From Candidatus Chloroploca asiatica (lineage in GTDB: Bacteria > Chloroflexota > Chloroflexia > Chloroflexales > Chloroflexaceae), in the NCBI RefSeq assembly GCF_002532075.1, contig NZ_LYXE01000140.1:1-33673 (forward strand): 33,673 nucleotides of DNA, in the 5' to 3' direction. A model generated the notes under the pieces. It was not told the DNA's origin, searched no databases, and saw nothing but the letters and a program-made list of their open reading frames with translations. Positions 6,153 through 33,247 of the stretch are shown here, one piece after another; within the stretch, counting starts at the first letter, position 1, and every line of letters begins with the position of its first letter. The position numbers and the translations under genes were made by a program.

Positions 6153-6172
6153 TCTGCTAGCATACGAGCAGA
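6153..6172 (+). promoter_or_regulatory. Candidate operator hairpin upstream of the toxin-antitoxin pair
   Basis: TCTGCT at 6153-6158 and AGCAGA at 6167-6172 form a 6-bp inverted repeat with an 8-base centre. It sits immediately before the ribosome binding site AGGAGG (6177-6182) of the antitoxin. Toxin-antitoxin operons are usually autoregulated through such sites; the assignment here is an inference. Confidence 0.35.
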
Positions 6173-6187
6173 CACAAGGAGGATCGT

Positions 6188-6436: not shown

Positions 6437-6587
6437 ACGTGGCGATGTGGTTCTGGTGCTTTTTCCCAACGCCGATCTGCGCACCACCAAAACACGTCCC
6501 GTTGTGATTGTCCAAGCGACGAATTTGGGTACAGGCTTGGCTCAATATAGGGTAGACACTGCGCTTCGTCACACGTTCGGGCTATGA
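6405..6587 (+). pseudogene. MazF/PemK-like toxin with central deletion
   Basis: Translation from the ATG at 6405 gives 60 aa. The N-terminal part, YKRGDVVLVLFPNADL then TKTRPVVIVQ, is a typical PemK/MazF mRNA-interferase start, with the GDVV strand and the KTRP loop that carries the conserved catalytic Arg. A complete protein of this family is about 110-120 aa. Here the sequence runs to NLGTGLAQ and then jumps to VDTALRHTFGL, which looks like the family C-terminus (usually a ...VDAALRHTLGL-type end). About 45 central residues holding the second half of the barrel and the conserved Ser/Thr are absent, while the frame is preserved. A working RNase is unlikely. It is coupled to the antitoxin by a 32-bp overlap. 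Confidence 0.75.
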
Positions 6588-6963
6588 CTTCGTCGGCCCG
6601 GGTTCCATCGCGCAGCCTGGGGCCATGCGACCGTCTTGCTCTGGTTCAGCTTCGCGGCAAGGCTGTTGACCACCACGCTCCCGTTTCATCCGGGTCAGGG
6701 GTGGAGGCTATGGCCTGATAGCTCGCCACCGGCTGCGTATCCACGGTCTTCTTCCTGGAACTCATTGCCCGTTCATCGCAACCGCGGTGATACGCTGCTC
6801 AGCGCATCACCGTGGTGGCGTCCCTGCGTGCGCGGGAGGCGTTGATGGGGTGTATCGCCTCGCACGTCTGCTCACGCAATTCGTTGGGGAGAAATCCGAT
6901 GGCCTCCCCGTGCGCTTGCTGGCGTGCGCTAGCTTCTCAGGTGACCATGGCAAGGAGATCCGT
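6588..6963. other. Unassigned stretch between toxin remnant and DinB fragment
   Basis: About 375 bp with no frame I can assign. One plus-strand frame reads ITVVASLRAREAL at about 6805-6845, vaguely like a transposase C-terminus, but stops and frame changes prevent a call. The strongest structure is the 36-bp imperfect palindrome at 6781-6816, listed separately. The end of the stretch carries AAGGAG (6954-6959), the ribosome binding site of the DinB-like fragment. Confidence 0.4.
6781..6816. repeat. 36-bp imperfect palindrome
   Basis: Arms ACCGCGGTGATACGCTG (6781-6797) and CAGCGCATCACCGTGGT (6800-6816) pair at 15 of 17 positions around a 2-base centre. No T-run follows, so it is a poor intrinsic terminator. 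Its symmetry suits a protein-binding site, a recombination site or a mobile-element end. Confidence 0.7.
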
Positions 6964-16900: not shown

Positions 16901-19262
16901 GGGTCTGCCCATTGTTCTGATCGATCTCGAGCCAACCAAACCGGGCTTGCCCCTCCAGCATCACTGGGCGCGTCGGCATGATCGCCACCAGCGCTGGATT
17001 GCGGGTCAGCGCCTCGGTGATCCGGGCCTTGGCTTCAGCGCTGATCGGCAGATTCGCCAACATATCGAGTTGATCGGTATTCAGGGCCACCAACGGGATG
17101 CCGTCGGCCTCGGCTTGGCGCAGCATGTTGGCAACACTAACCACCGGACGCCCGCTCAGCCGCTCAAGCACGCCGCTTTCTAACTCGCCATCAAGCAACC
17201 CGCGCGCCAGGTTAAAGGCGATCAGCCCTTCCCAGCTTTGTCCAGGGTAGACGATGGTGCGGCGCTCGTTGCTGCGCAGATCGAGCCGCAGTTCGGCCAC
17301 GTCATCGCGGGTCTCCCACGAGGCAATCAGCACCCGTGGCGTCGTCAGCACCGGACGCACGCGCAACTGCTCGCCCAGGCGCGCCGTCGCAAAATCAGAC
17401 TCGGCGGCAAACTGGAGCAGCAGTAACTCCTGGCTCAGCCGCACGCCCGCTTGCACATTGCGCTGCGCCGCACGCAGTTCGGGCATGCGCTCAGTCAATT
17501 GCTGTTCGCTGGCCCCTTGCAGCCCTGACACAAGGGCGTAGCCGGCCTGACTGTCGCGCACAATCGCATCACTGCCGACCGCCGCCCGGCTCAGCGCTTC
17601 GGGCGGAACCGTCGAAGGCGCAATCAGCAGCGAGTAAACCTGATCTTCACTGATGATCGGGGTTTGCCCGAGATCCGGGAGTTCGACCGAGCCACCCCGA
17701 CGGGCCACAAAGCCAGCCCGGTCGGCCAACGCCCGTTCGTGGCGCTCGGTTGTGCCGTCAGGCCCACGGGTCACAATCTCTAGCCAGACCCCAACCGTGA
17801 TCCGCGTCGCCAAGGGGAAGTTGGTCACGGAATCTTGGTAGTTCTGCCCAACAAACGCCTCGTCCCCGATGATGAAACTCGGGGTGTAGTCCGTAATCAG
17901 ACCGGAAAAGAGCGCCCCGCCCTGGGCGCGCTGGTTGGTCAGATGTTCCAGATTGACCGGTTCGCCCACAAGGCTAAAACTATTCAGGGTGACACTCAAC
18001 GGGTAGCTCGACTCGAGGCCACCTTGCACCGCGCTGCTCAACACGCTGTAATGTTCAACCCGCAGCCGCAGATCAACGGTGTGGCGCTGGGCGGCGGGCG
18101 GCTCGGCGACGCGGTCGCTCCCATCAGTGGCGACGGTGCTCACAAAGGTTTGACCCGGTTCAAGGCCAAAAGCCGGATCAACGTCACGCCAGCCCTGACT
18201 GGGGAGGAAAGCCTCGACCCACCAATGGTCGCGGGTCTCGCTCAGCAGCAACGGATCATTGTTGGGGTCACTCACCGGCGTACCGGGTGGGATCGTGCCA
18301 ATCGTGCCCAGCGCGGGCGGGAACATCGTCGCCAACAGATCACGGGCGCGTTCATCGGACAAGCTGCCGTGACGGTAGCGCGCCGGGACGCCACTGGCCC
18401 GCAACAGGGCGATCAACAGGCTGGTGCGGTCGAGACTATTGCCGGCTGCGCTCCAAAGCGTGCCGCGTGCGCCGCGTAACGAACCCACGTATGGCTCAAA
18501 GCCGAGCCCATTGACAAAGGCTACAATCCGGGTGGAATCGTGCCCGAGTGCCGCAGCCTGGGCCACGATAAAGGGATCGAGGTGATCCGCGTCAGGGGTG
18601 CGCTGGAGCCAGGGGGCCAGATCGTCTGCCACCAACCCCACCGGCGCCGAGGAAGCCTGCACCGGACGACCATGCAGCATCGCCCAGGCCTGGGCCTCGT
18701 CAGTCAGCGGGCCAGCGCTGCCCGCGGCACGCACGGTCAGGGTCACACTCAGGGTCGCCTGCGGCGGCAGATCTGCCAGCGCCCAGGCCAGTGCGGAGCC
18801 GTTGCGCTCGGGCGCAGGCACGGCACGCACGAACTGAACGCCCGTCGGCAGCGCCGTGGTCAGCAGCACGCTGTGCGCCGTGTTGGGATCAGCAGCCCGG
18901 TTGAAGCCCGCCACCAGGCGGATGCTCTCGGTGTAGGTCGCCCCAGGGGTGACCGGCGGGGCGACCAGTGGCGGCAGAGTATTGGTCACGCTAAAACTCA
19001 GCGTAACTAGGCCATCCTCCGCTTCGTCCAAGGTCACGGCTGATTGGGAACGCGCAATGCTCAACGGCGCACTGAGCGCCGCTGGCTCGTTGGTCGCCTG
19101 GGCCGAAAGCGCCGCTTGCACGCGGTCATAGGCACCTATAGAACGCGCAAACTCGGCTTTGGCCCGCGCCGGAACAGGGGCGATTGCGGTAATCAGGAGG
19201 ACGAGACAGAGTCCCAGGCGCACCAGGGCATGGCGGCGACGCGACGAGGCAACGAGCAGCAT
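7905..19262 (-). CDS. Giant secreted modular protein (3785 aa): transglutaminase-like, NEW3, beta-sandwich, FG-GAP domains
   Basis: A signal peptide (RRR, then a hydrophobic core, cleavage after ARA at about residue 34) sends this protein out of the cytoplasm. A conserved N-terminal beta domain leads to a transglutaminase-like fold (about 230-370). H346 in DHWWVEAF and D362 in DVDPAFG are present, but the usual cysteine is S276 in AAGNSLDRTSL, so it is probably non-catalytic. Residues about 400-960 are unrecognised, with one hydrophobic stretch (KWMFAFIGFWHGYFAYALSF). NEW3/CARDB-like Ig-type domains cover about 1200-1500 and again 3200-3740. An acidic RPQ repeat (about 1785-1857) acts as a linker. 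Tandem beta-sandwich modules span about 1870-2660, then FG-GAP/VCBS repeats (about 2670-3070) with DLDGDG-type calcium loops. It ends in VYLPLVRR, a tail I recall from secreted Chloroflexota proteins. RBS GAGGA precedes the ATG. The likely role is in adhesion, sheath or envelope. Confidence 0.95.
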   Translation of the reverse strand: MLLVASSRRRHALVRLGLCLVLLITAIAPVPARAKAEFARSIGAYDRVQAALSAQATNEPAALSAPLSIARSQSAVTLDEAEDGLVTLSFSVTNTLPPLVAPPVTPGATYTESIRLVAGFNRAADPNTAHSVLLTTALPTGVQFVRAVPAPERNGSALAWALADLPPQATLSVTLTVRAAGSAGPLTDEAQAWAMLHGRPVQASSAPVGLVADDLAPWLQRTPDADHLDPFIVAQAAALGHDSTRIVAFVNGLGFEPYVGSLRGARGTLWSAAGNSLDRTSLLIALLRASGVPARYRHGSLSDERARDLLATMFPPALGTIGTIPPGTPVSDPNNDPLLLSETRDHWWVEAFLPSQGWRDVDPAFGLEPGQTFVSTVATDGSDRVAEPPAAQRHTVDLRLRVEHYSVLSSAVQGGLESSYPLSVTLNSFSLVGEPVNLEHLTNQRAQGGALFSGLITDYTPSFIIGDEAFVGQNYQDSVTNFPLATRITVGVWLEIVTRGPDGTTERHERALADRAGFVARRGGSVELPDLGQTPIISEDQVYSLLIAPSTVPPEALSRAAVGSDAIVRDSQAGYALVSGLQGASEQQLTERMPELRAAQRNVQAGVRLSQELLLLQFAAESDFATARLGEQLRVRPVLTTPRVLIASWETRDDVAELRLDLRSNERRTIVYPGQSWEGLIAFNLARGLLDGELESGVLERLSGRPVVSVANMLRQAEADGIPLVALNTDQLDMLANLPISAEAKARITEALTRNPALVAIMPTRPVMLEGQARFGWLEIDQNNGQTRDVSEDGMHVALVDYAFLAVGMDTKWMFAFIGFWHGYFAYALSFVGAILSEMPIADDDLKGAWQRASGRAMAMVDEIIKGISDSAKNSGNDDDRIDAYLNGTGFAGKGGDTNEALIMQGGFKNGATVAQRIIDSQIDPPLPRALGDVAPRPASAPPFVSATVSPGSPALSAGSVNGTLTTAGLALNGPPERTAFYAPALAGLGVGGDGAAYALSNFASTANLSVQNTSLRLPPFTGTLQVAGQPLAPNGGLALVSFTGELTVREADASTDSVGLEGTATDLFTLGLTAPAGPLTPGEATALNSELRASFTSSFTLTVAPPPGWAAEVAANGRISLTPPLGTPAGDYGLLVFAEAQRAPGLPVAATQRVTVAARDGVTLRVALDPQTTVPWGPVNPDAPATGINDGRIQLSDAAFVATLTNEAATAREFTLSVDGLPAGWLVLSGADSAGQTRLRLPAGAIGQVGFAISPTLEILPPAGTAYPFTVRATATDNPARSASAVGSFRMPGLAYSYIEAQPTTLVTAPGQAAQFDLTVQNVGNAAGGFPLTATLPGAGWQLAGLPPVTNVGAGEVARLPIQIMAPPNAPTNQRVTLSLAARSGPYTQTLPIEVSLVAPEAICVYTAANAVTGAPAIALRELGAAVSALASTPSEAHREATASQLRLLADLVAGLPGGGSAAGELRARAALVLEANDAASLQAALAGLCREMDTLGTDLALAQRHGASVRFAPGTLAALPAQAVSAELVLRSQGREPTTYEVRFSGAPGLPAPQTLRLAPDEEARLPLSFSSAETGFLSVQADLTAVDASGDQLGFATSAKLGVQVVTAFVRVLRVELSPDFVETGVSSSTVRLEVANLVGMPRPATADLRLLAPDGSTVRTLSVPLTIVGGDPTSYTLGTLDSSALANGVYTATVVLRDPAGAAIPGGDGFGFLTVGEGLAASVDLAPLLVAPGSAVVTTSITTQIRQGAVLDQAAVTGFVPVAGPAAAPVVDGRDTPAGVSRPQADPNADEDLRPQTEPAAEGDARPQTDPAADEDSRPQGEPDPQDEARPQTDPAADEDSRPQGEPDPQDEDRLNVIRPAFIGPGITRYEENDATFSASGTWDSTGLSHASGGNSTQSRTAGDVISATLTSAWLHLGLATGPSYGRAEVLIDGVSQGEIDLYSRVNGLRSVAYANLGPGPHTIEVRVLGSRNPLSGDNWVNLDYLDAWDGTSMPEGTFEETDPRVGLSGSWFTRSDGEPSGGSYLNGYTDLASAWFPFTGDSVGVQLMVGPNYGRTHVRVDGQSLGLVDLRADTVAPKVFAFEGLGDGPHVLQIEQYRDDATLDAITVPGSAPFYTPPVPTGVIRYEEDDPALRYNGQPLATTARSWGVEWLSHVSGGSMTTSRTAGDVISATLTSAWLHLGLATGPYYGRAEVLIDGVSQGEIDLYSRVNGLRSVAYANLGPGPHTIEVRVLGSRNPLSGDNWVNLDYLDAWDGTSMPEGTFEETDPRVGLSGSWFTRSDGEPSGGSYLNGYTDLASAWFPFTGDSVGVQLMVGPNYGRTHVRVDGQSLGLVDLRADTVAPKVFAFEGLGDGPHVLQIEQYRDDATLDAITVPGSAPFYTPPVPTGVIRYEEDDPALRYNGQPLATTARSWGVDWLPQASGGYMATSRTAGDVISATLTSEWLHLGLATGPFYGQAEVLIDGVSRESIDTYSESPGLISRIYRDLGPGPHTLEVRVLGTSNPLSGDNWIGLDYLDAWDGTDAPTGLFTHESERVFRSRDWDMVASARVPGGSFIEDGSSAWFLTTGDEVTLIGATNPADANGPAQVEVWVDGVSRGPLDLSYAFSRSPLPLRLTGLGAGPHVIQITNLRRGGLVGFDSSATPFVGIPMVEWSSDVPASNDGYVITTISAGDLTGDGSVELALSSGNGNLYIYRGDGQDAGDGTPIIWQREVGLGDTPALVDLDGDGLVEVIVGSDRGVFAFAHDGTPLWSNSEIRPHTVKFRDYVFESLGWGGAAVANLDADPEAEIVAVGHLDVRPNPGVESQRLLVFKADGTVAARYDLPISEFQFTATPPLLADLTGDGRPEILVGQRNILIALSYANGTLSELWRRTTTITYGLWGEGTWGSPAVGNLDGNQPGGDPDPEIVMVWDTKIELLKADGSLVWSYDAGQRLNPGSVSLADVDGDGEVEIVTVMKRPWPADEQDIIVLNADGSLLWTQPVFDRTTSSSGVTVMDLDGDGRYEVVWNGAGTGLAIFQGSDGTLLFNEPLINSGTVNDYPIIADVDGDGQAEIIAGDNEGFYVVGFSDWGSARPLWNQYNYHITNINDDLTVPFSEPESWRVHNTYRTQSPLQNPVPVYTIDLTHTLPVSGVIPLEPSFSNPPLTPAPDLAWRYRQEGFSQPTRTTSFATSLPDLRPGEVRAVSLGTEVSYALPSGRNTLRFDPLYVTAARLITVRPLADEVAPGGLASYEVTLHNAGPTTNYSLAVLGLPPGWADLPASVELESNSTVTLTLRLNVPADTALEVYPFVVTATTDAGVQDQAPTTLTVSGSRLQLEPSLREARFGQVVTYTVTLDNPTASAQDYALRTNGLEGNGVALPATLSVPAGAERAFTLTVTATGLAGLAPFSVEAQASDGSLAAGTAALNVIGGPAVTSALSPAEAHTGPGAIAALTLTVTNLGSMADSYRFTLEAPTGWQAVLSADAEPVTSLRLLPVLFNRATLQLAVTPPPGTLPGRYPIRVRTTSALSSAAVSLAEATVVVSERGVGVAISPASATLAPDQAQTWTAQVTNLGSTADSFALTLGGVLAANARLEPAQVTLDAGATTQVQVQVEPLPFLPPGGLSFAVTARSQGDPTVSAAATARANVLGFNGVALSLSPEAMPLPSSGEVRLLAVITNTGNLDAIYDLQAESNAASWQTTLDPAVVFVPAGRAVAVLLSVSPSSRSGPEHQIFPPLIATSATSPPSTLRLRSNPAPLTQTPITVRVRAVVRGDTASAEASALLEAATPVSNERVYLPLVRR
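12004..13593. repeat. 795-bp tandem duplication inside the giant gene
   Basis: The segment 12004-12798 is repeated as 12799-13593, a period of 795 bp (265 codons). The two copies are nearly identical over about 675 bp (12004-12680 against 12799-13475), with the rare difference TGCG/CGCG at 12021/12816, and diverge somewhat towards the right end. Each copy encodes two related beta-sandwich modules (one with GDVISATLTSAWLHLGLATG, one with GDSVGVQLMVGPNYGRTHV). A third, more diverged copy of the first module lies at about 11640-12003. The near-identity indicates a recent duplication or ongoing gene conversion, and a site where module number may vary. Confidence 0.92.
13694..13837. repeat. 72-bp perfect tandem repeat within an acidic 12-residue repeat region
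   Basis: Bases 13694-13765 and 13766-13837 are identical. They belong to a longer run (about 13688-13905) that encodes six 12-residue units of the type RPQTDPAADEDS and RPQGEPDPQDEA on the minus strand. The exact duplication covers two units. The units are rich in Pro, Asp and Glu and have no hydrophobic residues, which suits an extended acidic linker between the Ig-like half and the beta-sandwich half of the giant protein. Confidence 0.9.
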
Positions 19263-19440: not shown

Positions 19441-21963
19441 ATGGTTCGTTCCTCTGTTTTTGGTGAATGGGTGCGCCGCCGCCGCACTTCCCTCGGTCTG
19501 ACTCAGGCGGCGCTTGCCGATCAGATTGCCTGTTCGCTCTCGCTGGTGCGCAAAATTGAACGCGGCGAGCGTACGTTGCCACCGGCGATGTTGCCGCAAG
19601 TGCTCGATCTGCTCCAGGCTACCCCGGCTGAGCAGGCGGCTTTTTTGCCCGCGAGCACGGTGCCACTCCCCGCGAGCCGCACCGTTGTCATCAACGCACC
19701 ACGCTCGCGCCCACCAGGGGCGGTACCTGCGCCGCCTAATCCCTTGCTTGGGCGTGAGGTTCTGCTCGCCACCATCCAACGCCATCTGTTGCGCGACGGC
19801 ACACGGTTGCTCACCCTGCTTGGCCCGCCCGGTGTTGGGAAAACCCGCCTCGCGCAGCATGCCGCACTCAACGTACGCCCGCTCTTTGACGACCATGTCG
19901 TCTATCTGGCGCTTGCCTCACTAAGCGAGCCGACCCAATTGCTCCCCGCGCTTGCCCGTGCCCTGGCGCTTACGGAACAGCCCGGAACTTCCCTGCTCAA
20001 TCAACTCGCCGATCGCCTGTATCATCAGTCAACCCTGCTCATCCTCGATAACTTCGAGCACCTGCTTGCGTCAGCTCACGATGTGGCTGAATTGCTCGCA
20101 CTCTGCCCTCTGCTCCAGGTTATTGCGACGAGTCGTGCGCCGTTGCGCCTGCGTGCCGAACGCCTCTTTGCGGTCGAGCCGCTCGGTTTGCCCGCAACAG
20201 ATCAGGCCGAGGCGATTGTCCAGGCCCCGTCCGTGCAACTCTTTGCCGAGCGCGCTGGCGCAGTGTGTCCGAGCTTCAAACTTGCCGATGCAGCTTCCGA
20301 AGTGGCCACGATCTGCCGCCGTCTCGACGGCCTCCCCCTTGCGATTGAGCTCGCTGCCGCACGTTGTTATCGTTTTACACCCGCTGAACTCCTGGCCCAG
20401 CTTTCGCCCTTGCTGCCTGCCCTCACTGAAGGCCCACACGATCTGCCCGAACGCCAGCGCACGCTCCATCGCGCGATCATGTGGAGCTACCAGTTGCTCG
20501 ATCCCGCGACCCGCCAGATCTTTGATCGCCTAGGTGTTTTCGAGGGCGGCTGGACACGGCACGCAGCGCAGACCATCAATGGTTCTATGCCCATCGCGCT
20601 GGCCCTTACCCAACTGGTGGAACAACAATTGGTGAAGGTCAAAGATGATCGCTACGAATTCCTGGAAACGTTGCGTGCCTTTGCGTTCGAGCAACTGAGC
20701 GCCAGCGGTGAACTGGCAACGCAACAGGCCCGGCATGCCGCATTCTTCGTCAAGCTGGCTGAGCAGGCCGAGGTCGCTCTTGATGGCCCAGAACAGCAGA
20801 CCTGGCTTGTGCATCTTGACGCCGAGTTACCCAACCTGCGGGCCGCCTACACCTGGTCGCTTGCCCACGACGGTGGCCTGGCTGGGTTGCGCATCAGTAC
20901 CGCTCTCTTCACCTACTGGCGCACACGCGGTCTCTTCAGTGAAGGGCGCCGCTGGCTCGAACCGTTGGTGGCGCATCCGCCGCCCGGCGATCTTGATCTC
21001 CAGGCACGCGCCAACTATGCCACGAGCTTTCTCATCTCACAACAGTCAGACACCAGTTGCTATGCCTATCTCGACCAGGCAATCGCCCTCTTTCGCGCCT
21101 GCGACAATCCAACTGGCCTCGCCCGCAGCCTCAACCTCGCGGGCATCCTTGCACGCATTCCTGGCAAATATGCGCAATCGGTCGAACTGCATCAACAGAG
21201 TCTCGCCCTGGCGCACTCAACCGGTGATGCCTTTTTGTTGTCCACGATCCTCAACAACCTGGGCATGACCTACGTCGCTCAGGGCAATTACCTCAATGCG
21301 ATCAACTGCTTTCACGACGCAATGACCTATGCGCGTGCCTGTGGTAATCACGTGCGGATCGCCGGTATACTTGTTAATCTCAGCAATGCGCTGCGTCTAC
21401 AGTGCGCTTACACGCAAGCTGAGGCCACTTTTCAACAGGCTCTCGTGCTTGCCGAACAGATCGGCATACCCGAGATCATCGCTGAGTCGCAGGATGGGTT
21501 GGGCCTGATCGCCCTTGCGAGCGGCGATTACCCTCAGGCTATGCAGTTACTCACCCAGAGCCTCAATACCTATGAAGCCCAGGGTCTGGTCTTTGCCGTC
21601 GTCCGCGTACGGCGCAACCTGGGATATCTGGCGCTCCAGCAGAGTGACGCAACGACAGCCGAGCACTGGTTCCGTGCCAGTATACACAGCTCCCCTCTGT
21701 CAGGGTTGGCCGACATCACCATCCATGCCATCGCTGGTCTGGCGCTGCTCGCCGCACAGCGGGGCAATGTGCCTAAAGCCGCACGACTGCTCGGGGCCGC
21801 TGAGCACCTGCAGCGTTCCTATGAACTAGGCACCGAGCCGAACGATTTGCATGTACGTGTGCAGGTGCGCACCTTGATCGCAGTGCATCCAACCTGGCAG
21901 GCTGACTATGCAGCAGGCAGCATGCTATCATTGGCGCAAGTGCTCGCCGAGTATACATATTAG
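19441..21963 (+). CDS. XRE-type HTH, NB-ARC (STAND) ATPase, TPR regulator
   Basis: An N-terminal Cro/C1-type helix-turn-helix (about residues 6-62; GEWVRRRRTSLGLTQAALA and SLVRKIERGER) is joined to a STAND NTPase. The P-loop is GPPGVGKTRLA with K134, and Walker B is STLLILDNFEHLL (about 195-208), followed by the ATSRAPLRL sensor and LDGLPLAIELAAAR, the GLPLA motif of NB-ARC proteins. From about residue 500 to 790 are tetratricopeptide-type repeats (for example LNNLGMTYVAQGNYLNAI and LGYLALQQSD). Such proteins act as ligand-gated switches, with TPRs sensing, ATP exchange opening the protein and the HTH binding DNA. At 840 aa it looks full-length, with no frameshift. It is transcribed away from the giant secreted gene across 178 bp, which makes that gene a candidate target. 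No enzymatic effector is attached, so regulation is more likely than a killing role. Confidence 0.93.
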   Translation: MVRSSVFGEWVRRRRTSLGLTQAALADQIACSLSLVRKIERGERTLPPAMLPQVLDLLQATPAEQAAFLPASTVPLPASRTVVINAPRSRPPGAVPAPPNPLLGREVLLATIQRHLLRDGTRLLTLLGPPGVGKTRLAQHAALNVRPLFDDHVVYLALASLSEPTQLLPALARALALTEQPGTSLLNQLADRLYHQSTLLILDNFEHLLASAHDVAELLALCPLLQVIATSRAPLRLRAERLFAVEPLGLPATDQAEAIVQAPSVQLFAERAGAVCPSFKLADAASEVATICRRLDGLPLAIELAAARCYRFTPAELLAQLSPLLPALTEGPHDLPERQRTLHRAIMWSYQLLDPATRQIFDRLGVFEGGWTRHAAQTINGSMPIALALTQLVEQQLVKVKDDRYEFLETLRAFAFEQLSASGELATQQARHAAFFVKLAEQAEVALDGPEQQTWLVHLDAELPNLRAAYTWSLAHDGGLAGLRISTALFTYWRTRGLFSEGRRWLEPLVAHPPPGDLDLQARANYATSFLISQQSDTSCYAYLDQAIALFRACDNPTGLARSLNLAGILARIPGKYAQSVELHQQSLALAHSTGDAFLLSTILNNLGMTYVAQGNYLNAINCFHDAMTYARACGNHVRIAGILVNLSNALRLQCAYTQAEATFQQALVLAEQIGIPEIIAESQDGLGLIALASGDYPQAMQLLTQSLNTYEAQGLVFAVVRVRRNLGYLALQQSDATTAEHWFRASIHSSPLSGLADITIHAIAGLALLAAQRGNVPKAARLLGAAEHLQRSYELGTEPNDLHVRVQVRTLIAVHPTWQADYAAGSMLSLAQVLAEYTY

Positions 21964-25358: not shown

Positions 25359-25459
25359 TCGTGCCGTTGGGCATACACGACCGCACTGCGCGAGTTGACC
25401 AGCGCGAAGATCGCCCAGCGCGTGGCCCGGTGCGAGCTATAGATATATCAGACTGAATC

Positions 25460-25488
25460 TCGACAACAGCACCTAAAACATGTATCAT
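25460..25488 (+). promoter_or_regulatory. Candidate promoter of the pRiA4b/SWIM operon
   Basis: TCGACA (25460-25465) and TATCAT (25483-25488) are separated by exactly 17 bp, each differing from the sigma70 consensus by one and two bases respectively. Transcription would start near 25495 and leave a leader of about 200 nt. No better promoter is seen closer to the gene. Confidence 0.5.
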
Positions 25489-25692
25489 CTGGGTAGTTCG
25501 GTCAACCTTTGTGAGCGACTAGGGGCATTTGCCATGGAGCCAACGTTGCGAGATCTCGGGGGACAACCGCAGCACCTGATGGCGGCATGCACTTTCAGGT
25601 GACTCAGAATCATTGGAAATACTTTACAGATTCATGCCGCCTCAGACTCTCTTGCTGCGGCGCGACTCTGCACTATGTGAAAGGGCAACGCG
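25489..25692 (+). other. Long leader with a possible small ORF and hairpin
   Basis: The 200-nt leader of the operon contains a 22-codon frame (ATG 25534 to TGA 25602) without a good ribosome binding site. It also has a perfect 9-bp inverted repeat, GGCGGCATG (25581-25589) and CATGCCGCC (25633-25641), with a 43-base loop. The frame ends inside the hairpin loop. This geometry could allow translation-dependent control, but no known riboswitch is recognised. Confidence 0.3.
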
Positions 25693-26901
25693 ATGGGTGA
25701 GGAAGACCACCCTCTGGAGGATTGGCTCTTTATCAGCGCACGGGTGCCTCCCGGCAACCTTGATCAGCACTTCCTGCGTTTAGTTCGCACATCGCTTGAC
25801 CAGCTAGAGAAGGCTTTGGCTGGTGAAGCTGGCAGCAAGCAACGCTTCAGCGATCTGCTGCCGCCTTTCTCCGAGCTAACCCCGCTGACCTTGCCGCCCT
25901 CTGAGCGCGAGCGTGCTCAGCAGCTCGCCGTCCAGCTCGCGAAGCGCGGCACCAGGGACGCGGCGAGGGCCGAGGCGTTTCTGCTCAATGCGATCGGCTT
26001 CACCCAGGCCACCGAGTCTCTTCCCTTCTGGCAGGCGCTGCTCGACCTGAAACGCTCGCGCGACAGCTTCGCTCCGCGCAGGCGACAATTCGCCGTGGGG
26101 GCCCTGGCCCTGCTCGCGATCAGGCAGGCGAGCCCGGCCGCGTACGCCGCACTTGACGCCGCGCTCCAGCACACGAATGAGCAGGTGCGCGCCCAGGCTG
26201 CCTACTACCTCGGCAGCGCCTACACCATCCCTAGGCGTCCGCTCCCCGAGCATGTTTTGGTTGCGCTCAATGCCTGCGCATCCAACGACCCCGCCTTCGA
26301 GGTGCGCTACCAGGCCCGCATGACTCTGCGCTACGTTGGGGTGCCAGCCCCGCTCGATCGTCCTGGTGGCGTCTACCTGTTCAGGGTGCAGCTCAGAGAC
26401 GACCGTTCGGGCGCGACGCGCACCATCGCTCTGCGCCCTGAGCAGACCCTCGAGGATCTGCACTTCGCGATCCAGGACGCCTTTGCGTGGGACGCCGACC
26501 ACCTCTATAGCTTCTTCCTGCGTGGGAAGGAGTTCGACGCCGCCTACGAGATCTCCGGCCCCGATGGCGACCCCTTCGCGGGTGCGCTCTTTGGGGAGGA
26601 TCTGCAGCTGATCACGGGTGAGGAAGCTGCAGGCGTAGAGGATGATGAGGACGTTGAGCCCCTGGATGCCACCACCGCTGTGCTCGGTCAGTTGGGCCTG
26701 CGCGTCGGCCATACGCTGCTCTACTACTTCGACTACGGCGACGACCACAAGTTTGATGTCAGGCTCGTGACGATCCAGCCGCAGGCTGAGCCGGGCGACT
26801 ATCCGCGTCTGGTCGAGTCAACGGGGGACGCGCCGCCCCAGTACTACGGCGACGAAGATGAGGATGATGAGGATGATGAGGACTGGGAGGAAGAGATATG
26901 A
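25693..26901 (+). CDS. Plasmid pRiA4b ORF-3-like family protein with N-terminal helical repeats
   Basis: This is a 402-aa protein of unknown function. Residues about 70-215 are all-helical and HEAT-like (FAVGALALLAIRQASPAAY, then EQVRAQAAYYLGSAY, then FEVRYQARMTLRYVG). Residues about 226-380 match the pRiA4b ORF-3-like (PF07929-type) fold: VYLFRVQLRDD, LEDLHFAIQDAFAWDADHLY, FFLRGKEF and the diagnostic LLYYFDYGDDHKFDV. The C-terminus (383-402) is almost entirely Asp/Glu. The fold is often found near mobile elements, but its biochemical role is not established. The ATG at 25693 is preceded by a modest AAAGGG. The stop overlaps the next gene's start in an ATGA, which makes the two genes translationally coupled. 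GC and codon use look normal for the window and the gene shows no damage. Confidence 0.85.
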   Translation: MGEEDHPLEDWLFISARVPPGNLDQHFLRLVRTSLDQLEKALAGEAGSKQRFSDLLPPFSELTPLTLPPSERERAQQLAVQLAKRGTRDAARAEAFLLNAIGFTQATESLPFWQALLDLKRSRDSFAPRRRQFAVGALALLAIRQASPAAYAALDAALQHTNEQVRAQAAYYLGSAYTIPRRPLPEHVLVALNACASNDPAFEVRYQARMTLRYVGVPAPLDRPGGVYLFRVQLRDDRSGATRTIALRPEQTLEDLHFAIQDAFAWDADHLYSFFLRGKEFDAAYEISGPDGDPFAGALFGEDLQLITGEEAAGVEDDEDVEPLDATTAVLGQLGLRVGHTLLYYFDYGDDHKFDVRLVTIQPQAEPGDYPRLVESTGDAPPQYYGDEDEDDEDDEDWEEEI

Positions 26902-28802
26902 CGATCATCCCGGGCCTCAGCGAGCAGGTGATCCGCCGACACGCCGCAGGCGAAATGTTCAGTCGCGGTGAGGACTACGTTCGCGAGGGCATGGTCGCTG
27001 GCCTGACGCTACATGAGGGCGTCCTGGAGGCGCTGGTGCATGGCAGCCAGTACGACCCCTACCGCGTGCGCGTCACCTTCGACGCCGGGGGCCTGGTTGC
27101 GGCGACCTGCACCTGCCCCGCTGCAGCGCACGCATGGTGCAAGCATATGGTCGCCGCTCTGCTCGTCGCGCTCCGGCAGCCCGAGTCCGTCCAGGTCGCG
27201 CCGCCCCTTGCGGCGCTGCTGGAGACCCTCGACCGCGAGCAGCTCATGGGCCTGCTGCTGCGCATGGTCGCACGCCAGCCCGACCTTGCCGATATGCTTG
27301 CGGGAGAGGTTGCGGCCAAGCAGTCCGCCACGCCACCGCGCGCTGCTCCGGCGCGCCCGCCCATAGACGTCGGCCCGATCCAGCGCCAGGTGCGCACGCT
27401 GCTTCGCGCATCGTACCGTGATTATAACGACTACTATGACGATGGCCCATCCAGCATGATCACCGAGGGTATGGGCGACATCCTCAACCAAATACGCGGC
27501 TTTGTCGAGGGCGGCGACAGCGCCAACGCCCTGAGCCTACTTCAGGCGATCACCGAGGAGTGTCGCGCGGGCCAGCATGCCTTCGACGACTCTTACGACA
27601 CCCTTGACCCCGTCTTCGACAACCTGGGCGAGCTCTGGGCCGAGGCACTGCTCGTAGCAGATCTGCGCCTCGATGAGCTGGAGGAGTGGGCCGAACAGAT
27701 CGCGGAGTGGGCTGACGATACGGCGGACTATGGGAACGACCATGGCCTGCGGCTGGCGATGAAGGCCGCCCTGGAGGGTTGGCACGACCCGTTGATCGTC
27801 CGCGCCCTGCGCGGCGAGCCGGTGCTCACCCCTGCGCCGCGTGTGGTCGAGGTGGGCGAGCGTGAGGCGTCGGAAGCGGACGAGGGCTCGGACGGCGATG
27901 ACGACGATGAGAACGAGAGCTTGGACGACAAGGATGAGGAGTGGGACGAGGCACCGCTCACCACGGTGCGAGCGTCGGCGACCGCCCCGCGTCCCAAGCT
28001 GGCCCTGATCCGGCTGCGCATCCTGGAGCGCCAGGGTCGCCTGGAAGACTACCTCAACCTCGCCGCAGCCTACGAACTGCATCGCGAGCGTGCCCTGATG
28101 CTGGCCCACCTGGGCAGGGCGGAGGAGGCTGTCACGGCGGGCATCGCGACCCTTGCCAGCGCCGCGGATGCCCTGGCGCTCGCCATGGCCCTGCGCGAGG
28201 GCGGCGCGCTCGACGCGGCACTTCGGGTCGCCGAGCATGGCCTGGGTCTGGATGGGCTGCGGGGCGCTCTGGGCGACTGGCTGGCCTCGTTCGCGCCTGG
28301 ACTTGGCCGACCTGACCTGGCCCTGCGTGCGGCAGAGGTGGCCTGCGCCAGCGAGCCGAGCATGGCACGCTACCTGGCCGCCCGCGAGCTCGCCGGCGAG
28401 GGCTGGCCCAAGTTGCGCGCGCGGCTGCTCGACCAGCTGCGCAAGGGCGCCGGGGGCTGGATAGGCTCCCGCGCCCAGGCCGAGATCTTCCTGCACGAGG
28501 GTCTGATTGATGATGCGATCAAGGTGGCCGAGCGAAACAGCTACGGCGTGCTGGAGCTGGTGATGGACGCGGCGATCACCACCCGACCCCAGTGGGTGAT
28601 CAAGAAGGCCATCGCCCAGGCTGTGCCAATTATGAACGGCGGGAAGGCTCAGCACTACGACCGGGCGGTGAACTGGCTGCGCCGGGCCCGCGATGCCTAC
28701 CACGCCGCAGGCCAGGCAGACGCCTGGGAGCGCTACCTGGCGGAGGTGCGGGCGATCCACGGGCGCAAGTACAAGCTCATGGGGCTGCTCAAGGAGCTGT
28801 GA
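26898..28802 (+). CDS. SWIM zinc-finger protein
   Basis: This is a 634-aa protein whose N-terminal 90 residues carry a SWIM zinc finger: C71-x-C73-x7-C81-x-H83 within CTCPAAAHAWCKHMVA, preceded by the usual FSRGEDYVREGMV and YRVRVTF strands. SWIM fingers bind DNA or protein. The rest is mainly helical: a region around 170-290 rich in Asp and Glu, a central acidic run (DEGSDGDDDDENES and on to about residue 353) and from about 365 to 600 TPR-like or alpha-solenoid pairs (LRILERQGRLEDYLNLAAAY, then MLAHLGRAEEAV). It begins inside the last codon of the pRiA4b-like gene (ATGA overlap), so the products are likely made in fixed ratio and may form a complex. No nuclease, helicase or transposase motif is visible. 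Confidence 0.87.
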   Translation: MTIIPGLSEQVIRRHAAGEMFSRGEDYVREGMVAGLTLHEGVLEALVHGSQYDPYRVRVTFDAGGLVAATCTCPAAAHAWCKHMVAALLVALRQPESVQVAPPLAALLETLDREQLMGLLLRMVARQPDLADMLAGEVAAKQSATPPRAAPARPPIDVGPIQRQVRTLLRASYRDYNDYYDDGPSSMITEGMGDILNQIRGFVEGGDSANALSLLQAITEECRAGQHAFDDSYDTLDPVFDNLGELWAEALLVADLRLDELEEWAEQIAEWADDTADYGNDHGLRLAMKAALEGWHDPLIVRALRGEPVLTPAPRVVEVGEREASEADEGSDGDDDDENESLDDKDEEWDEAPLTTVRASATAPRPKLALIRLRILERQGRLEDYLNLAAAYELHRERALMLAHLGRAEEAVTAGIATLASAADALALAMALREGGALDAALRVAEHGLGLDGLRGALGDWLASFAPGLGRPDLALRAAEVACASEPSMARYLAARELAGEGWPKLRARLLDQLRKGAGGWIGSRAQAEIFLHEGLIDDAIKVAERNSYGVLELVMDAAITTRPQWVIKKAIAQAVPIMNGGKAQHYDRAVNWLRRARDAYHAAGQADAWERYLAEVRAIHGRKYKLMGLLKEL

Positions 28803-28872
28803 TCACAGCCTCGTCCGGCTATGCGACAATATCACCAGCATAGGTACCAAGAAAGCGTGACGGCTCCCAGGG

Positions 28873-29112
28873 CTGACCGAAATCGTTGCGTGTGCGCAGT
28901 ACGGGCATCCGATGGTGTACCAGCCGGGCGACAGCACGGTGCGCACGCACCATTACTACCACTGTAGTCGGCGGATCAACTGGCGCGATTGTCCCGCTCG
29001 TATGGTCTGGATCGACGCCGTTGATGCGCAGATGCTTCAGGTGGTGAAGGCCCTCGCCTTGCCGGAGGACTAGAAGCGCGAGATTCTGGCCCAGGCCGAG
29101 GCCTTGCCTTAA
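28873..29112 (+). pseudogene. Serine recombinase zinc-ribbon remnant with an in-frame amber codon
   Basis: One frame reads LTEIVACAQYGHPM, then HHYYHCSRRINWRDCPARMVW and LQVVKALALPED, the recombinase zinc beta ribbon and following helix of large serine recombinases. The second ribbon cysteine is tyrosine (CAQY instead of CxxC). A TAG at 29071-29073 stands where the family has tryptophan (LPEDW). Coding resumes as KREILAQAEALP to a TAA at 29110. The catalytic and recombinase domains are absent. With the fragment at 7175-7756 it shows that this recombinase family has been active here twice or that a locus was rearranged. Confidence 0.7.
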
Positions 29113-30352: not shown

Positions 30353-33130
30353 CTACGGCAACTCCAGCATGCCGAGCGCCCGGCCCCTGGCAACCGCCTG
30401 CGTGCGACTTGAGACGCCGAGTTTGCTGTAGATGTTGCGCGTATGCACCTTAACCGTCTGTGGCGAGAGGTGTAGCCGCACGGCAAGCTCCTGGTTGCTG
30501 AGACCCTCGGCGATCAAGCGCAGCACCTCGCGCTCACGCTCGCTGAGCGACTCGCCTGAAGGAGGCGGGAGGTGGGAGGCAGGATGCAACGTTGCTTGCT
30601 TGCCAAAGGCGTTCAGCAGGGTGTGAACATACGCCTGCATCAGTCCGCCTGTATCCCGCATCCGTTCCAACAGCCTTGCCAACGGCGGTCCTTCATCCAC
30701 GAATAGCCGCACGTAGCCCTCGGGCTCGGCAAGGGCCAGGGCGCGTTCCAGCGGAACGCGCGCCTGGCTTGGCTCACTGCACACCTCGTGGGCCATGGCC
30801 TGGAGCAGGAGGATCTCGATCACACTCTCAACCCTCCCCGTGGCCTCTGCCGCACTCAGCAGCCGGACGAGTAGTGGGAATACGGCCGGCAACTCGTCGT
30901 GATCCTGCTGCTGACGAGCGCGGGCCAACAGCAACCTGACGAGCGTGAGTTGTTCAAACTCGCGGAGGTAGCCTAGCTCGTCTGCAGGTTTCAGGCCCAC
31001 CTCTGCGGCCCAGGCTGACGCAGCGGCGAGGTTGCCCTGCCGCAGGCGTACCCGTGCCTTGAGCGCCGCGATGGGGCGCAGGTCGGGGACAGGGTTGGGA
31101 ACATAGCGTCGCCCGGCCTCGTCCAGCAGATCAAGGGCGGCCTCCCAGTCGCCTGTTGACGCCTTCACCCGGGCCTGGAGCAGATGCCAGCGGAACGGCC
31201 AGTCGATCAGCGCAACCCGTTCGCCCGCTTCCTTGCTCGCCTGGAGGTGCCGCGCAGCAGTCGGCCCGTCGCCCTGCTCGTGGGCGACCAGGGCCAACCC
31301 CAGGTGCAGATGCGGCACGGCCCGGCTGGCACCCTCGTCGTCCGGCGGCACCAACTCGAGTAACTGCCGATACAGCCTGGCCGCCTCGCGCAGCTGGCCC
31401 TGGGCAAGCCGCATCTCCACCAGATAGAAGCTACTAGCCAGCGTGAAGGCGAGCTGACCGGCCTCGCGGGTATACGCGATCCAGACGTTGATGGCGCGCT
31501 CGGCGGCAGTGATATCGCCCTCGGCCAAGTGGGAAAAGCTAAGCAACGACATGGCCTGGGCGCGCAGCAGCGGCTGCGCGTCGTTGGGCTGGGCGAGGGC
31601 GCAGGCAGCGTGCTGCGCCGCAGCAGCGAAATCGCCCGCAGCATGGGCATTGTAGGCCCGGAGAATGGCGATCTGCATCGGCAGCGCCGCGAATTGCGCT
31701 TGCAGCAGCACGACCGGCTCCTCAGCTTGGCCCTCCGGTGCCAACCAGCGCTCGGCGTCGCGCAGCCGGGCCGTGCTGCCCTCTAGGTCGCCAGCGTTGC
31801 TCAGCGCCGAGGCGTACTGCATGCAGAGCACTGGCCTGGTCAGCAGCACCGCCTCGGGGAGCTGTCGCACCCAGCGGCACCAGGCGGCCGACTGAAAACC
31901 GCTGTCCAGTTGCGCCCACGAGCACTCGGCCAGCGCAGCGACCCGGGCGGGGTCAGCCGCCGCAGCGGCATGATCCAGCGCCTCTAGCATCAGACCCTGA
32001 GCCTCATACCAGTCACTTGCGCGGAGGTGGAGTCCGGCGAGGTCATCCTTCGACAGGCCCGCGTCCTGCGGGAGGCGCTGCCGCAGCAACTCGCCAAATA
32101 GGTGATGGTAGCGATACCAACGCCGCTCGTCGTCGAGGGGAACCAAGAACAGATTGGCACGTTCAATGGCGTAGAGGGTGGCTTGACCAACGCCGGGGGG
32201 GGCCTCAAGCACCGCATCGCACAATGGCCCGCACAGCCGGTCGAGGATCGCAGTGCGGAGCAAGAACTGCTGGATGAGCACGGGCTGCTGGCGGAGAACC
32301 TCTTCGAGCAGGTAGTCGCGCACAAAGCGATGGCTGCCAGAAAAGGAGCGCACGAAGCCAGCACTGTCCTGGTGGCCCCGCAGGGAGAGCGCGGCTAGTC
32401 GGAGGCCAGCGGCCCAACCCTCGGTGCAGCGCTCCAGGGCGGCGACGTCCTCCGCCGACAGCCTGAGACCTTCGGTCTTGGTGAACAGCGCGCTCGCTTC
32501 CAACGGGGTGAAGCGTAGATCCACGGCGCGCAGCTCACTCAACGCGCCGCGGGCGCGCAGGCGTGCCAGGGGCAACTGCGGATCTTCGCGGGTGGCGATG
32601 ACCAGGTGCAACTGAGGCGGCTGGTGGGCCAGCAGCAGGCTGAGGGCCGCATCAACTGGCGGCGAATTGACCAGATGATAGTCGTCGAGCACCAGCACGA
32701 TCGGCTGCGCGAGCGCGGCAAGCGCATTGATCAGATCTGTCATCGCTACGTCCGTGGGCGGCGGCTGGGGGGCAAGCAGCGAGGCCATGAGCCCGGCCCC
32801 AAGCTGCGGTACAACGCTCTGCAGCGCAGCGACGAGGTAGGCCAAGAAGCGTGCGGGCTCCCGATCACCTTCGTCGAGGGTCAACCAGGCGGAACGTAGA
32901 GCGGGATTGGATTGGTCATTGCCCGCTTGTTCTACAGTCTGCGTTCTGCGCTCTAGGCTTGGAAGCCACTGACTAAGCAGCGTGGTTTTCCCAAAGCCGG
33001 CCGGGGCGGCAATCAGGGTCAAGTTACGCCGTAGCCCATCGTTGAGCTGCGTGAGCAACCGTGGCCGCAGCACACTATTCGGCTGCGGCGGGGGGCGGTA
33101 TAGCTTTGTCGCCAAGAGAGAGGTGGACAT
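30353..33130 (-). CDS. MalT-type LuxR-family STAND transcriptional regulator
   Basis: Counting from MSTSLLATKLYRPP at 33130 the protein has 925 aa. The P-loop APAGFGKTT (K48) and Walker B PIVLVLDDYHLV belong to the MalT-type STAND ATPase. The middle (about 420-800) consists of TPR-like helices (for example EQGDGPTAARHLQASKEA). The last 65 residues are a LuxR/GerE helix-turn-helix: LSEREREVLRLIAEGLSNQE and LHLSPQTVKVHTRNIYSKLG. MalT itself binds maltotriose and activates sugar genes; the ligand here is unknown. The frame is open to 33211, but the family start is at 33130. Upstream lie two TATAAT boxes very close to the ATG. The downstream gene on the same strand is the quinone oxidoreductase, 186 bp away, a plausible target. 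Confidence 0.93.
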   Translation of the reverse strand: MSTSLLATKLYRPPPQPNSVLRPRLLTQLNDGLRRNLTLIAAPAGFGKTTLLSQWLPSLERRTQTVEQAGNDQSNPALRSAWLTLDEGDREPARFLAYLVAALQSVVPQLGAGLMASLLAPQPPPTDVAMTDLINALAALAQPIVLVLDDYHLVNSPPVDAALSLLLAHQPPQLHLVIATREDPQLPLARLRARGALSELRAVDLRFTPLEASALFTKTEGLRLSAEDVAALERCTEGWAAGLRLAALSLRGHQDSAGFVRSFSGSHRFVRDYLLEEVLRQQPVLIQQFLLRTAILDRLCGPLCDAVLEAPPGVGQATLYAIERANLFLVPLDDERRWYRYHHLFGELLRQRLPQDAGLSKDDLAGLHLRASDWYEAQGLMLEALDHAAAAADPARVAALAECSWAQLDSGFQSAAWCRWVRQLPEAVLLTRPVLCMQYASALSNAGDLEGSTARLRDAERWLAPEGQAEEPVVLLQAQFAALPMQIAILRAYNAHAAGDFAAAAQHAACALAQPNDAQPLLRAQAMSLLSFSHLAEGDITAAERAINVWIAYTREAGQLAFTLASSFYLVEMRLAQGQLREAARLYRQLLELVPPDDEGASRAVPHLHLGLALVAHEQGDGPTAARHLQASKEAGERVALIDWPFRWHLLQARVKASTGDWEAALDLLDEAGRRYVPNPVPDLRPIAALKARVRLRQGNLAAASAWAAEVGLKPADELGYLREFEQLTLVRLLLARARQQQDHDELPAVFPLLVRLLSAAEATGRVESVIEILLLQAMAHEVCSEPSQARVPLERALALAEPEGYVRLFVDEGPPLARLLERMRDTGGLMQAYVHTLLNAFGKQATLHPASHLPPPSGESLSEREREVLRLIAEGLSNQELAVRLHLSPQTVKVHTRNIYSKLGVSSRTQAVARGRALGMLELP

Positions 33131-33151
33131 ACCTCCATTATATCCATTATA
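33131..33151 (-). promoter_or_regulatory. Twin TATAAT boxes next to the LuxR regulator start
   Basis: Read on the minus strand, TATAAT occurs at 33151-33146 and again at 33142-33137, followed by GGAGGT abutting the ATG. The proximal box would place transcription start at about the A of the ATG (a leaderless message); the distal box would leave a leader of about eight bases. No convincing -35 is seen. Confidence 0.4.
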
Positions 33152-33247
33152 AGGCCAGAGCACATGACATCTCGCGCACCTACTCAGCACCGGCAACGGG
33201 CTCGGCAGCATGTACGGGCCGCTCAGACCAGAGCGCGTAGCCCAACC

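What the first reader, a model, noticed from the sequence alone, without database searches (positions are those of the whole stretch)
25460..28802. Intact two-gene operon: pRiA4b ORF-3-like protein coupled to a SWIM zinc-finger protein
The two genes share an ATGA overlap, both encode helical-repeat proteins with long acidic tracts, and they stand undamaged in a window full of broken genes. The first contains a fold known mainly as a passenger of mobile elements. The second has a canonical SWIM finger (C71, C73, C81, H83) but no enzyme domain. A paired DNA- or protein-binding complex with DNA-mimic-like acidic tails is plausible, and I know of no described function for this pair. The pairing and motifs are seen; the role is inferred.
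Basis: partly seen in the sequence, partly recalled or inferred. Interest (0 to 1): 0.62.

Follow-up and report, generated by a model that had tools for sequence, protein, structure and literature searches.

The report
Bacterial ZSWIM8-like protein with pRiA4 partner
A gene pair of a green photosynthetic bacterium makes a zinc-finger helical protein that looks like a prokaryotic relative of the human ubiquitin-ligase receptor ZSWIM8 and yeast Cut8, beside a partner of the pRiA4 family; the same two kinds of gene sit together again in salt-loving archaea, which makes a shared job likely though still untested.

Summary
The operon is real. HEAT-pRiA4 gene 25693-26901 and SWIM gene 26898-28802 share ATGA and are intact; against a congener the block 25450-28821 is 98.75% identical while the flanks differ. 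The pairing recurs but is optional: in 61 genomes 9 of 25 kept SWIM places (9 of 40 counting weak ones) have a PF07929 gene within 1 kb on the same strand, 0.009 expected. Of nine haloarchaeal plasmids with a full-length SWIM gene, five have a pRiA4-type gene within 110 bases, up- or downstream, two of them below Pfam's cut-off. In the 400-genome phylum survey none of 31 SWIM-bearing genomes outside the window's family shows it. The SWIM protein is nearest human ZSWIM8 (profile E 3.8e-15; Foldseek E 3.5e-9) and Cut8 (Z 11.8). Its post-SWIM helices align with the first half of ZSWIM8's knotted dimerisation domain; 14 of 15 genome-wide hits of the Cut8 model in 400 genomes fall in this family. 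Best reading: a homodimeric SWIM adaptor with pRiA4 as partner. The SWIM protein's acidic tract is lineage-specific and looks disordered, so DNA mimicry is not supported. Dimerisation, binding and role are inferred.

The parts
25450..28821 (+). Block shared at 98.75% with Candidatus Chloroploca mongolica (L021) and G001 (L046) while the flanks differ: the pair as a discrete cassette
   Evidence: blastn
25460..25488 (+). sigma-70-like promoter match (TCGACA-17-TATCAT)
   Evidence: consensus scan; not evidence of function
25693..26901 (+). HEAT-pRiA4 protein P0001, 402 aa: HEAT repeats, then a PRiA4_ORF3 domain ending in GDAPPQY, then an acidic tail
26371..26850 (+). PF07929 PRiA4_ORF3 domain, residues 227-386; fold of 2i1s (Z 17.2)
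26898..28802 (+). SWIM protein P0002, 634 aa, start overlaps gene 1 by ATGA
26994..27176 (+). SWIM module: strands 33-71 and finger C71 C73 C81 H83 with A86 (residues 33-93)
27204..27326 (+). Post-SWIM helices (residues 103-143; modelled at low confidence, pLDDT 50-57) matching Cut8 PF08559 positions 52-86 and the first half of the ZSWIM8 D-domain
   Evidence: dimerisation by analogy with PMC13083262 and PMC10808114
27363..27779 (+). Helical bundle, residues 156-294, superposes on Cut8 3q5x (Z 11.8, 3.1 A, 128 residues)
27828..27989 (+). Disordered acidic insertion, residues 311-364, acidic in 3 of 20 members aligned
27993..28799 (+). TPR-like superhelix, residues 366-634, with a conserved basic motif (HGRKYKLM here) near its C-end

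Best explanation
The two genes encode a two-protein module. P0002 is a non-enzymatic, zinc-stabilised adaptor: the SWIM finger organises a helical dimerisation segment right behind it, so that two copies are held together as a clamp, and the helical bundle and TPR-like superhelix of each arm bind a client. P0001 is made together with it by translational coupling and is the partner held by, or presented to, that clamp: HEAT repeats to dock and a PRiA4_ORF3 domain (2i1s fold) as the recognition part. Shown here: the gene structure; the recurrence of the SWIM-pRiA4 pairing with different pRiA4 types and gene orders in Chloroflexota and haloarchaea; the sequence and fold relation of the SWIM protein to ZSWIM8 and Cut8. 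Inferred: dimerisation, the P0001-P0002 complex, client binding, and the cellular role, most likely a service function of plasmids and other accessory DNA (DNA upkeep or defence).
For: Pairing: 9 of 25 kept SWIM places against 0.009 expected; in haloarchaea again, with the partner upstream or downstream; ATGA or short gaps; the 98.75% block ends 243 bases before and 19 after the genes. Adaptor: profile A1 hits human ZSWIM8 (9rwz_N, E 3.8e-15), aligning 13-130 to ZSWIM8 127-247 and, colinear but weak on its own, 196-277 to 349-455; the ZSWIM8 D-domain is residues 225-268 and forms a knotted dimer, SWIM 172-208 being its organiser (PMC13083262, section 9 read). Eukaryotic Zswim4 too has a Cut8/STS1 domain after its SWIM (PMC10897318, passage). 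Foldseek: the two ZSWIM8 chains first (E 3.5e-9 and 3.5e-8), next hit 3.4e-4; VIA: ZSWIM8 Z 12.9 over 480 residues, Cut8 Z 11.8, rmsd 3.1, 128 residues. Pfam Cut8 matches 14 of 20 members at E up to 1; genome-wide 14 of its 15 places at E up to 0.01 in 400 genomes and 3 of 3 at E up to 0.001 in 61 genomes lie in SWIM-family genes.
Against: Without the SWIM part the profile no longer finds ZSWIM8 at E up to 1 and finds Cut8 only at E 0.047. Cut8 matches are below Pfam's cut-off (P0002 21.4 against 26.2; 0 of 400 genomes over it). TPR_ZSWIM8 (PF25572) matches 3 of 20 members weakly and genome-wide its 6 places are elsewhere. The ZSWIM8 superposition has rmsd 18.5, and helical proteins reach such Z easily, as that output warns. 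The model rests on 4 sequences and the post-SWIM helices have pLDDT of only 50-57. P0001's model is poor (pLDDT 64). Many SWIM relatives have no pRiA4 neighbour seen: 16 of 25 kept places (31 of 40 with weak ones) in 61 genomes, 31 of 31 SWIM-bearing genomes outside the window's family, the two next-closest full-length relatives (L051, L058); contig ends hide some neighbours. No complex was modelled or measured.
Confidence: 0.45

Rival explanations
1. A nucleic-acid factor: the SWIM and pRiA4 proteins form a DNA-binding recombination or repair accessory, as Shu2/SWS1 SWIM proteins do with RAD51 paralogues.
For: The finger keeps the Shu2/SWS1 signature CXC...CXHXXA, with A86 invariant in the 20 members aligned (signature from PMC6316741, passages). 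DNA-repair-type genes lie near some haloarchaeal copies: SprT-like, DUF790 with a DEAD/DEAH helicase, helix-hairpin-helix and UvrD-type. The PRiA4 domain model resembles the DNA-binding subunit SNAPC3 (Z 10.8; SNAPC3 binds promoter DNA, PMC9758055, passages).
Against: No RecA/RadA gene is named in the annotated loci read, though none was searched for; neighbour genes were not counted against a background; the pRiA4 sequence profile does not find SNAPC3 at E 10.
Confidence: 0.2
2. An anti-phage or anti-plasmid defence module with the SWIM protein as scaffold.
For: PADLOC's candidate PDC-S62 matches 20 of 20 members scanned; on some plasmids the gene lies near restriction, toxin-antitoxin and CRISPR Cmr or DISARM drmD genes.
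Against: For P0002 the PDC-S62 match covers 11-143 only, i.e. SWIM plus the helices after it; no nuclease, protease or other effector domain in either gene; on those four plasmid loci my pRiA4 profile found no partner. That PDC means a phage-defence candidate is recalled, not read.
Confidence: 0.2
3. Passengers: both genes ride on mobile DNA and are found together only because such islands collect them.
For: PF07929 is very common on plasmids; a recombinase zinc-ribbon remnant lies just behind the pair (ORF from 28861); the flanks differ between near-identical copies; the pairing is patchy.
Against: ATGA overlap, same strand and mostly tight spacing; 9 against 0.009 expected, though that null does not keep islands together; different pRiA4 types beside the same family; dN/dS below 1.
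Confidence: 0.15

Closest known systems
Human ZSWIM8 (and the ZSWIM family of cullin-RING substrate receptors)
   Same: SWIM finger with the strands before it, then the first half of the dimerising D-domain (profile E 3.8e-15), then helical repeats in the same order; best fold match
   Different: No room for the BC-cullin-box that precedes the SWIM in ZSWIM8; no ubiquitin system is implied; one third of the length; can be paired with a pRiA4 protein
Cut8/Sts1 nuclear proteasome tether (PF08559, 3q5x)
   Same: Helices matching PF08559 52-86, then a helical bundle (Z 11.8)
   Different: Scores are under the Pfam cut-off; that Cut8 has no SWIM finger and no TPR superhelix is recalled, in line with its 245-residue chain
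pRiA4b ORF-3-like proteins (PF07929; 2i1s MM3350)
   Same: P0001's C-terminal half is a member (73.7 bits) with that fold
   Different: HEAT repeats in front; an APPQY end shared with the haloarchaeal upstream partners instead of the PPED end of the stand-alone kind
SWIM zinc finger family proteins of plasmids; PADLOC candidate PDC-S62
   Same: Same protein family over nearly full length on plasmids of haloarchaea, cyanobacteria, rhizobia; PDC-S62 matches 20 of 20 members
   Different: No pRiA4 partner found on the seven bacterial plasmid loci read; no acidic insertion in the plasmid members aligned
Shu2/SWS1
   Same: CXC...CXHXXA SWIM signature
   Different: No relation outside the finger was found or sought; no RAD51 paralogue named beside the loci read

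Membership tests
PRiA4_ORF3 (PF07929) | Score over Pfam's cut-off | tested here: met
   P0001 73.7 bits against 26.6
PRiA4_ORF3 (PF07929) | 2i1s fold | tested here: met
   VIA Z 17.2, 140 residues, rmsd 4.1; Foldseek E 2.1e-6
SWIM (PF04434) | Score over cut-off and CxC...CxH | tested here: met
   26.7 against 19.6 bits; motif in 20 of 20 members aligned
ZSWIM8-type cullin-RING receptor | SWIM followed by D-domain helices | tested here: met
   Sequence alignment 13-130 to ZSWIM8 127-247, E 3.8e-15, reaching the first half of the D-domain; second half not aligned
ZSWIM8-type cullin-RING receptor | BC-cullin-box before the SWIM (ZSWIM8 71-111) | tested here: not met
   The match to ZSWIM8 127 begins near the N-end of the family; P0002 has only about a dozen residues before it
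ZSWIM8-type cullin-RING receptor | TPR_ZSWIM8 (PF25572) helical region | tested here: inconclusive
   3 of 20 members weakly, P0002 not among them; genome-wide 6 places, none at a SWIM-family gene
ZSWIM8-type cullin-RING receptor | Knotted homodimer | not testable with these tools
   No complex prediction on hand
Cut8 (PF08559) | Score over Pfam's cut-off | tested here: not met
   21.4 against 26.2 bits; 0 of 400 genomes over it
Shu2/SWS1 | CXC...CXHXXA | tested here: met
Shu2/SWS1 | RAD51-paralogue partner | not tested
   No RecA/RadA search was run; none is named in the annotated loci read
PDC-S62 defence candidate | Match along the whole model | tested here: inconclusive
   Positions 13-147 of 566 for P0002; coverage of the other 19 members not shown
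DNA-mimic proteins | Conserved, structured acidic domain | tested here: not met
   SWIM protein: acidic insertion in 3 of 20, pLDDT about 27-34. P0001 tail: pLDDT 33-38 in a weak model and variable in relatives

The most novel reading that the evidence does not exclude
The SWIM protein is a living prokaryotic form of the ZSWIM/Cut8 core: a knotted SWIM-D-domain dimer that existed before ubiquitin and was later wired to cullins and the proteasome. In bacteria and archaea it works as a two-armed clamp with a pRiA4 protein as its recognition subunit, whose domain itself shares the core fold of the eukaryotic promoter-binding protein SNAPC3. A client captured between the arms, possibly a nucleoprotein of invading or plasmid DNA as AGO2-RNA is for ZSWIM8, would then be sequestered or handed on.
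Probability: 0.22. Interest if true: 0.85.

Novelty: new variant of a known kind. Interest (0 to 1): 0.6.

Why it matters
The dimeric SWIM module of ZSWIM8 was described in 2026 as part of a distinct class of cullin ligase (PMC13083262). A small bacterial and archaeal family with the same SWIM-plus-dimerisation core, and no ubiquitin parts, would let the core's own function be studied in a simple system and bear on where the ZSWIM and Cut8 proteins come from. It also gives the orphan pRiA4 family, found on 2816 of 72,556 plasmid records (700 with at least 80% cover), a first candidate partner. My paper searches on these links found none describing them: 'SWIM zinc finger'+'pRiA4b' (0 papers), 'ZSWIM'+'prokaryotic'+'SWIM zinc finger', 'ZSWIM'+'Cut8' (1 paper, which reports a Cut8/STS1 domain after the SWIM in eukaryotic Zswim4; passages). 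The library holds open-licence papers only.

Tried and rejected
DNA mimicry by the acidic tracts: rejected. Pair as a fixed element: rejected, since SWIM relatives 73-78% identical (L051, L058) have other neighbours and HEAT-pRiA4 occurs without SWIM (G032 C168). Pair on viruses: the SWIM profile gave 42 pattern matches and no relative among viral contigs and P0002 none among phage records; pRiA4 alone is on 19 viral contigs. TPR_ZSWIM8 as support: not specific. SWIM-less profile against ZSWIM8: no hit at E up to 1. SNAPC3 by sequence: no hit at E 10. Repeats of the flanks in the own genome, as a trace of an insertion element: each flank matched only itself. NCBIfam gave no match for either protein nor for six pRiA4-type proteins (0 of 6). 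MoxR/vWA-linked SWIM systems were considered from memory; a paper search with 'SWIM domain', 'MoxR' and 'bacteria' found 0; I ran no gene search for them. Papers: PMC13083262 section 9 and passages; PMC10897318, PMC10808114, PMC6316741, PMC9758055, PMC9652321, PMC11899642 passages only; others as search listings.
Full report
What is there. Gene 1 (25693-26901, 402 aa) and gene 2 (26898-28802, 634 aa) are intact and overlap by ATGA. Protein 1 carries HEAT repeats and a PRiA4_ORF3 domain (PF07929, 73.7 bits, cut-off 26.6); protein 2 carries a SWIM finger (26.7 bits, cut-off 19.6) and no enzyme domain. The stated start, 25460, is the start of a promoter-like match, not of the gene.

The pair as a unit. 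The window lies in a genome close to Candidatus Chloroploca (the best genome match is C. mongolica, 99% for P0002). Against C. mongolica (L021) and G001 (L046) the DNA is 98.75% identical over 25450-28821 and the flanks differ, apart from short pieces before the genes. Behind the pair a recombinase zinc-ribbon remnant lies in an open frame 28861-29070 (25.8 bits, cut-off 25.3); in L021 the end of a DNA alkylation repair gene (36.7 bits) lies before the pair, a second, shorter copy of it follows (seen in the translations; no Pfam match), and a PemK-type toxin gene lies between them. So the pair behaves as a cassette. dN/dS is 0.34 (SWIM) and 0.48 (HEAT-pRiA4) against L021 on few changes, 0.27 for SWIM against L051 and 0.20 for the pRiA4 part against L061.

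Does the pairing recur? In 61 genomes (own plus 60 relatives), of 25 SWIM-family places that I kept, nine have a PF07929 place (69 in all) within 1 kb on the same strand; 0.009 are expected if pRiA4 genes fell at random. With the 15 weaker places it is nine of 40. The nine are of two kinds: the kind of P0001 (G000; G001 C121; G032 C172, where both genes look broken; G012 C393, 77% identical over residues 297-400, HEAT part not seen) and stand-alone pRiA4 or cut forms of it (G001 C104, G002, G014, G030, G031). G001 has both kinds. Nearness by descent makes the nine not independent; on a tree of 31 SWIM proteins, 10 of them labelled as having an adjacent partner, the label needs 5 changes, which starred branches alone force.

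In haloarchaea the same pairing appears again. Nine plasmid records hold a SWIM relative over at least 98% of the Natronorubrum protein at 49.8-100% identity. Five have a pRiA4-type gene within 110 bases on the same strand: upstream in Natronorubrum bangense (overlap; PF07929 75.5 bits), Natribaculum luteum (annotated as plasmid pRiA4b ORF-3 family protein) and N. breve plasmid 1; downstream in Halococcus dombrowskii and Natrinema pellirubrum, where the match is below Pfam's cut-off (25.1 and 20.3 bits against 26.6). Two have one 2 to 4 kb away (Halovenus, Halorubrum); two have none found within 5 kb (L096, L097). The haloarchaeal upstream partners and P0001 share an APPQY end (GDAPPQY or GEAPPQY) that the stand-alone kind lacks.

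Against a general rule: on seven bacterial plasmid loci read (L025, L027-L030, L032, L033) my pRiA4 profile found no partner. In 400 Chloroflexota genomes the SWIM family was found in 40 and PF07929 in 86; 31 of the 40 lie outside the window's family (5 in its order, 26 outside its class), and in none of the 31 is a PF07929 place within 1 kb, though contig ends may hide some. The two next-closest full-length SWIM relatives, 73 and 78% identical (L058, L051), have other neighbours. The pRiA4 protein is thus an optional partner, gained or lost repeatedly.

What the SWIM protein is. A profile of 20 members hits human ZSWIM8 (9rwz_N) at E 3.8e-15, far above the next PDB hit (3.5e-4, a designed TPR). 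The alignment runs from before the SWIM finger through it into the following helices (13-130 to ZSWIM8 127-247); a second piece, not significant on its own but colinear, aligns 196-277 to 349-455. In ZSWIM8 the SWIM (172-208) organises a D-domain (225-268) whose helices from two protomers are intertwined in a knot; a monomeric form is defective on its target (PMC13083262, section 9). The Cut8 Pfam model matches the same place in P0002 (103-137). Cut8 and Sts1 have a three-helix domain, by which Cut8 dimerises and Sts1 is inferred to, then a six-helix bundle (PMC10808114, passages); in eukaryotic Zswim4 a Cut8/STS1 domain follows the SWIM (PMC10897318, passage). Genome-wide the Cut8 model is sharp: of its 15 places at E 0.01 or better in 400 genomes, 14 are SWIM-family places, and the fifteenth (G327) was not examined; in 61 genomes 3 of 3 at E 0.001. 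None reaches Pfam's cut-off.

The predicted fold agrees in part. The AlphaFold2 model (4 sequences, mean pLDDT 77) has SWIM strands, helices at 104-142 of low confidence (pLDDT 50-57), a bundle at 159-304, a disordered acidic stretch at 311-364 and a well-predicted superhelix at 366-633. Foldseek puts the two ZSWIM8 chains first (E 3.5e-9, 3.5e-8; next 3.4e-4). VIA gives ZSWIM8 Z 12.9 over 480 residues, but rmsd 18.5, so arms and core do not superpose as one body; Cut8 (3q5x) Z 11.8, rmsd 3.1 over 128 residues at 156-294; that output warns that helical models can reach such Z without kinship. Against it: a profile without the SWIM part no longer finds ZSWIM8 and finds Cut8 only at E 0.047, and TPR_ZSWIM8 is weak in 3 of 20 members and unspecific genome-wide (6 places, none in the family). 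I therefore hold the SWIM plus D-domain relation as well supported, the bundle as likely, and homology of the superhelix as open.

How it probably works. By analogy, P0002 dimerises behind its SWIM finger and offers two helical arms. P0001, coupled in translation, is the likely bound partner, with HEAT repeats and a compact recognition domain (2i1s fold, Z 17.2). No catalytic domain is present in either, so the module should act by holding or presenting something. The role is open; nearby genes in archaea point to DNA upkeep (SprT-like, DUF790 with a helicase) and the PADLOC candidate PDC-S62, matching 20 of 20 members, points to defence. Neither was tested against a background.

The acidic tracts. 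The one in the SWIM protein is confined to P0002 and its two nearest relatives in the alignment and predicted disordered. The tail of P0001 is short, varies in relatives and has low confidence in a weak model. A DNA-mimic role is not supported.

Verdict. Membership in the ZSWIM receptor class fails (no BC-cullin-box), membership in Cut8 fails (below cut-off); 'works like a SWIM dimer clamp' stands as the best-supported inference.

Noticed in passing
window 26350-26829 (P0001 about residues 220-379): The PRiA4 domain model resembles the promoter-binding subunit SNAPC3/SNAP50 (7zx8_b Z 10.8, 144 residues, 3.7 A; 9fso_Z; 7xur_B), of which one 2022 paper says it has no known homologous structure (PMC9652321, passage) and another describes a ubiquitin-like central domain (PMC9758055, passage). 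The sequence profile does not find it, Foldseek does not list it among its 50 rows and the model is weak.
   Followed up: partly
G047:C14:60131-60550, G053:C1:4325555-4325974, G055:C3:58338-58757: Open frames of only 150-160 aa that hold just the SWIM and post-SWIM helices: a minimal stand-alone SWIM-dimerisation unit.
   Followed up: no
L094, L095, L031: A SprT-like protease gene (named or matched in L031 and L094) and a conserved ORF of about 280 aa lie near the SWIM-pRiA4 genes in Natribaculum and Halovenus.
   Followed up: partly
L098 1996-4849; L102 1149-3936: A DEAD/DEAH helicase gene with DUF790 lies beside the SWIM gene in Halococcus and near a pRiA4 gene in Natrinema zhouii.
   Followed up: no
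window 28861-29070; L021 5701-7316: Remnants around the cassette: recombinase zinc ribbon behind it; in L021 the end of a DNA alkylation repair gene in two copies with a PemK-type toxin gene between; part of that stretch also matches window 6113-6847.
   Followed up: partly
G032:C168:9143-10330 (L062): A second HEAT-pRiA4 gene, 45% identical, without a SWIM gene in the stretch read.
   Followed up: partly
window 7905-19262 (-): A 3785-aa protein with a transglutaminase core and FG-GAP and Ig-like repeats.
   Followed up: no
window 19441-21963; 30353-33211; 4462-5673: HTH-AAA/NB-ARC-TPR protein, MalT-like LuxR regulator, and a trypsin-like protease with a weak, sub-threshold TIR/FxsC-like N-end.
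   Followed up: no
BFVD A0A3G5A3U8: A giant-virus (Harvfovirus) SWIM protein is the only viral fold match of P0002 at E up to 0.001 (E 1.6e-6).
   Followed up: no
Haloferax volcanii HVO_0362: A SWIM protein annotated as proviral is listed among genes regulated in strains without Cas11b (PMC11899642, passage); whether it belongs to this family was not tested.
   Followed up: no
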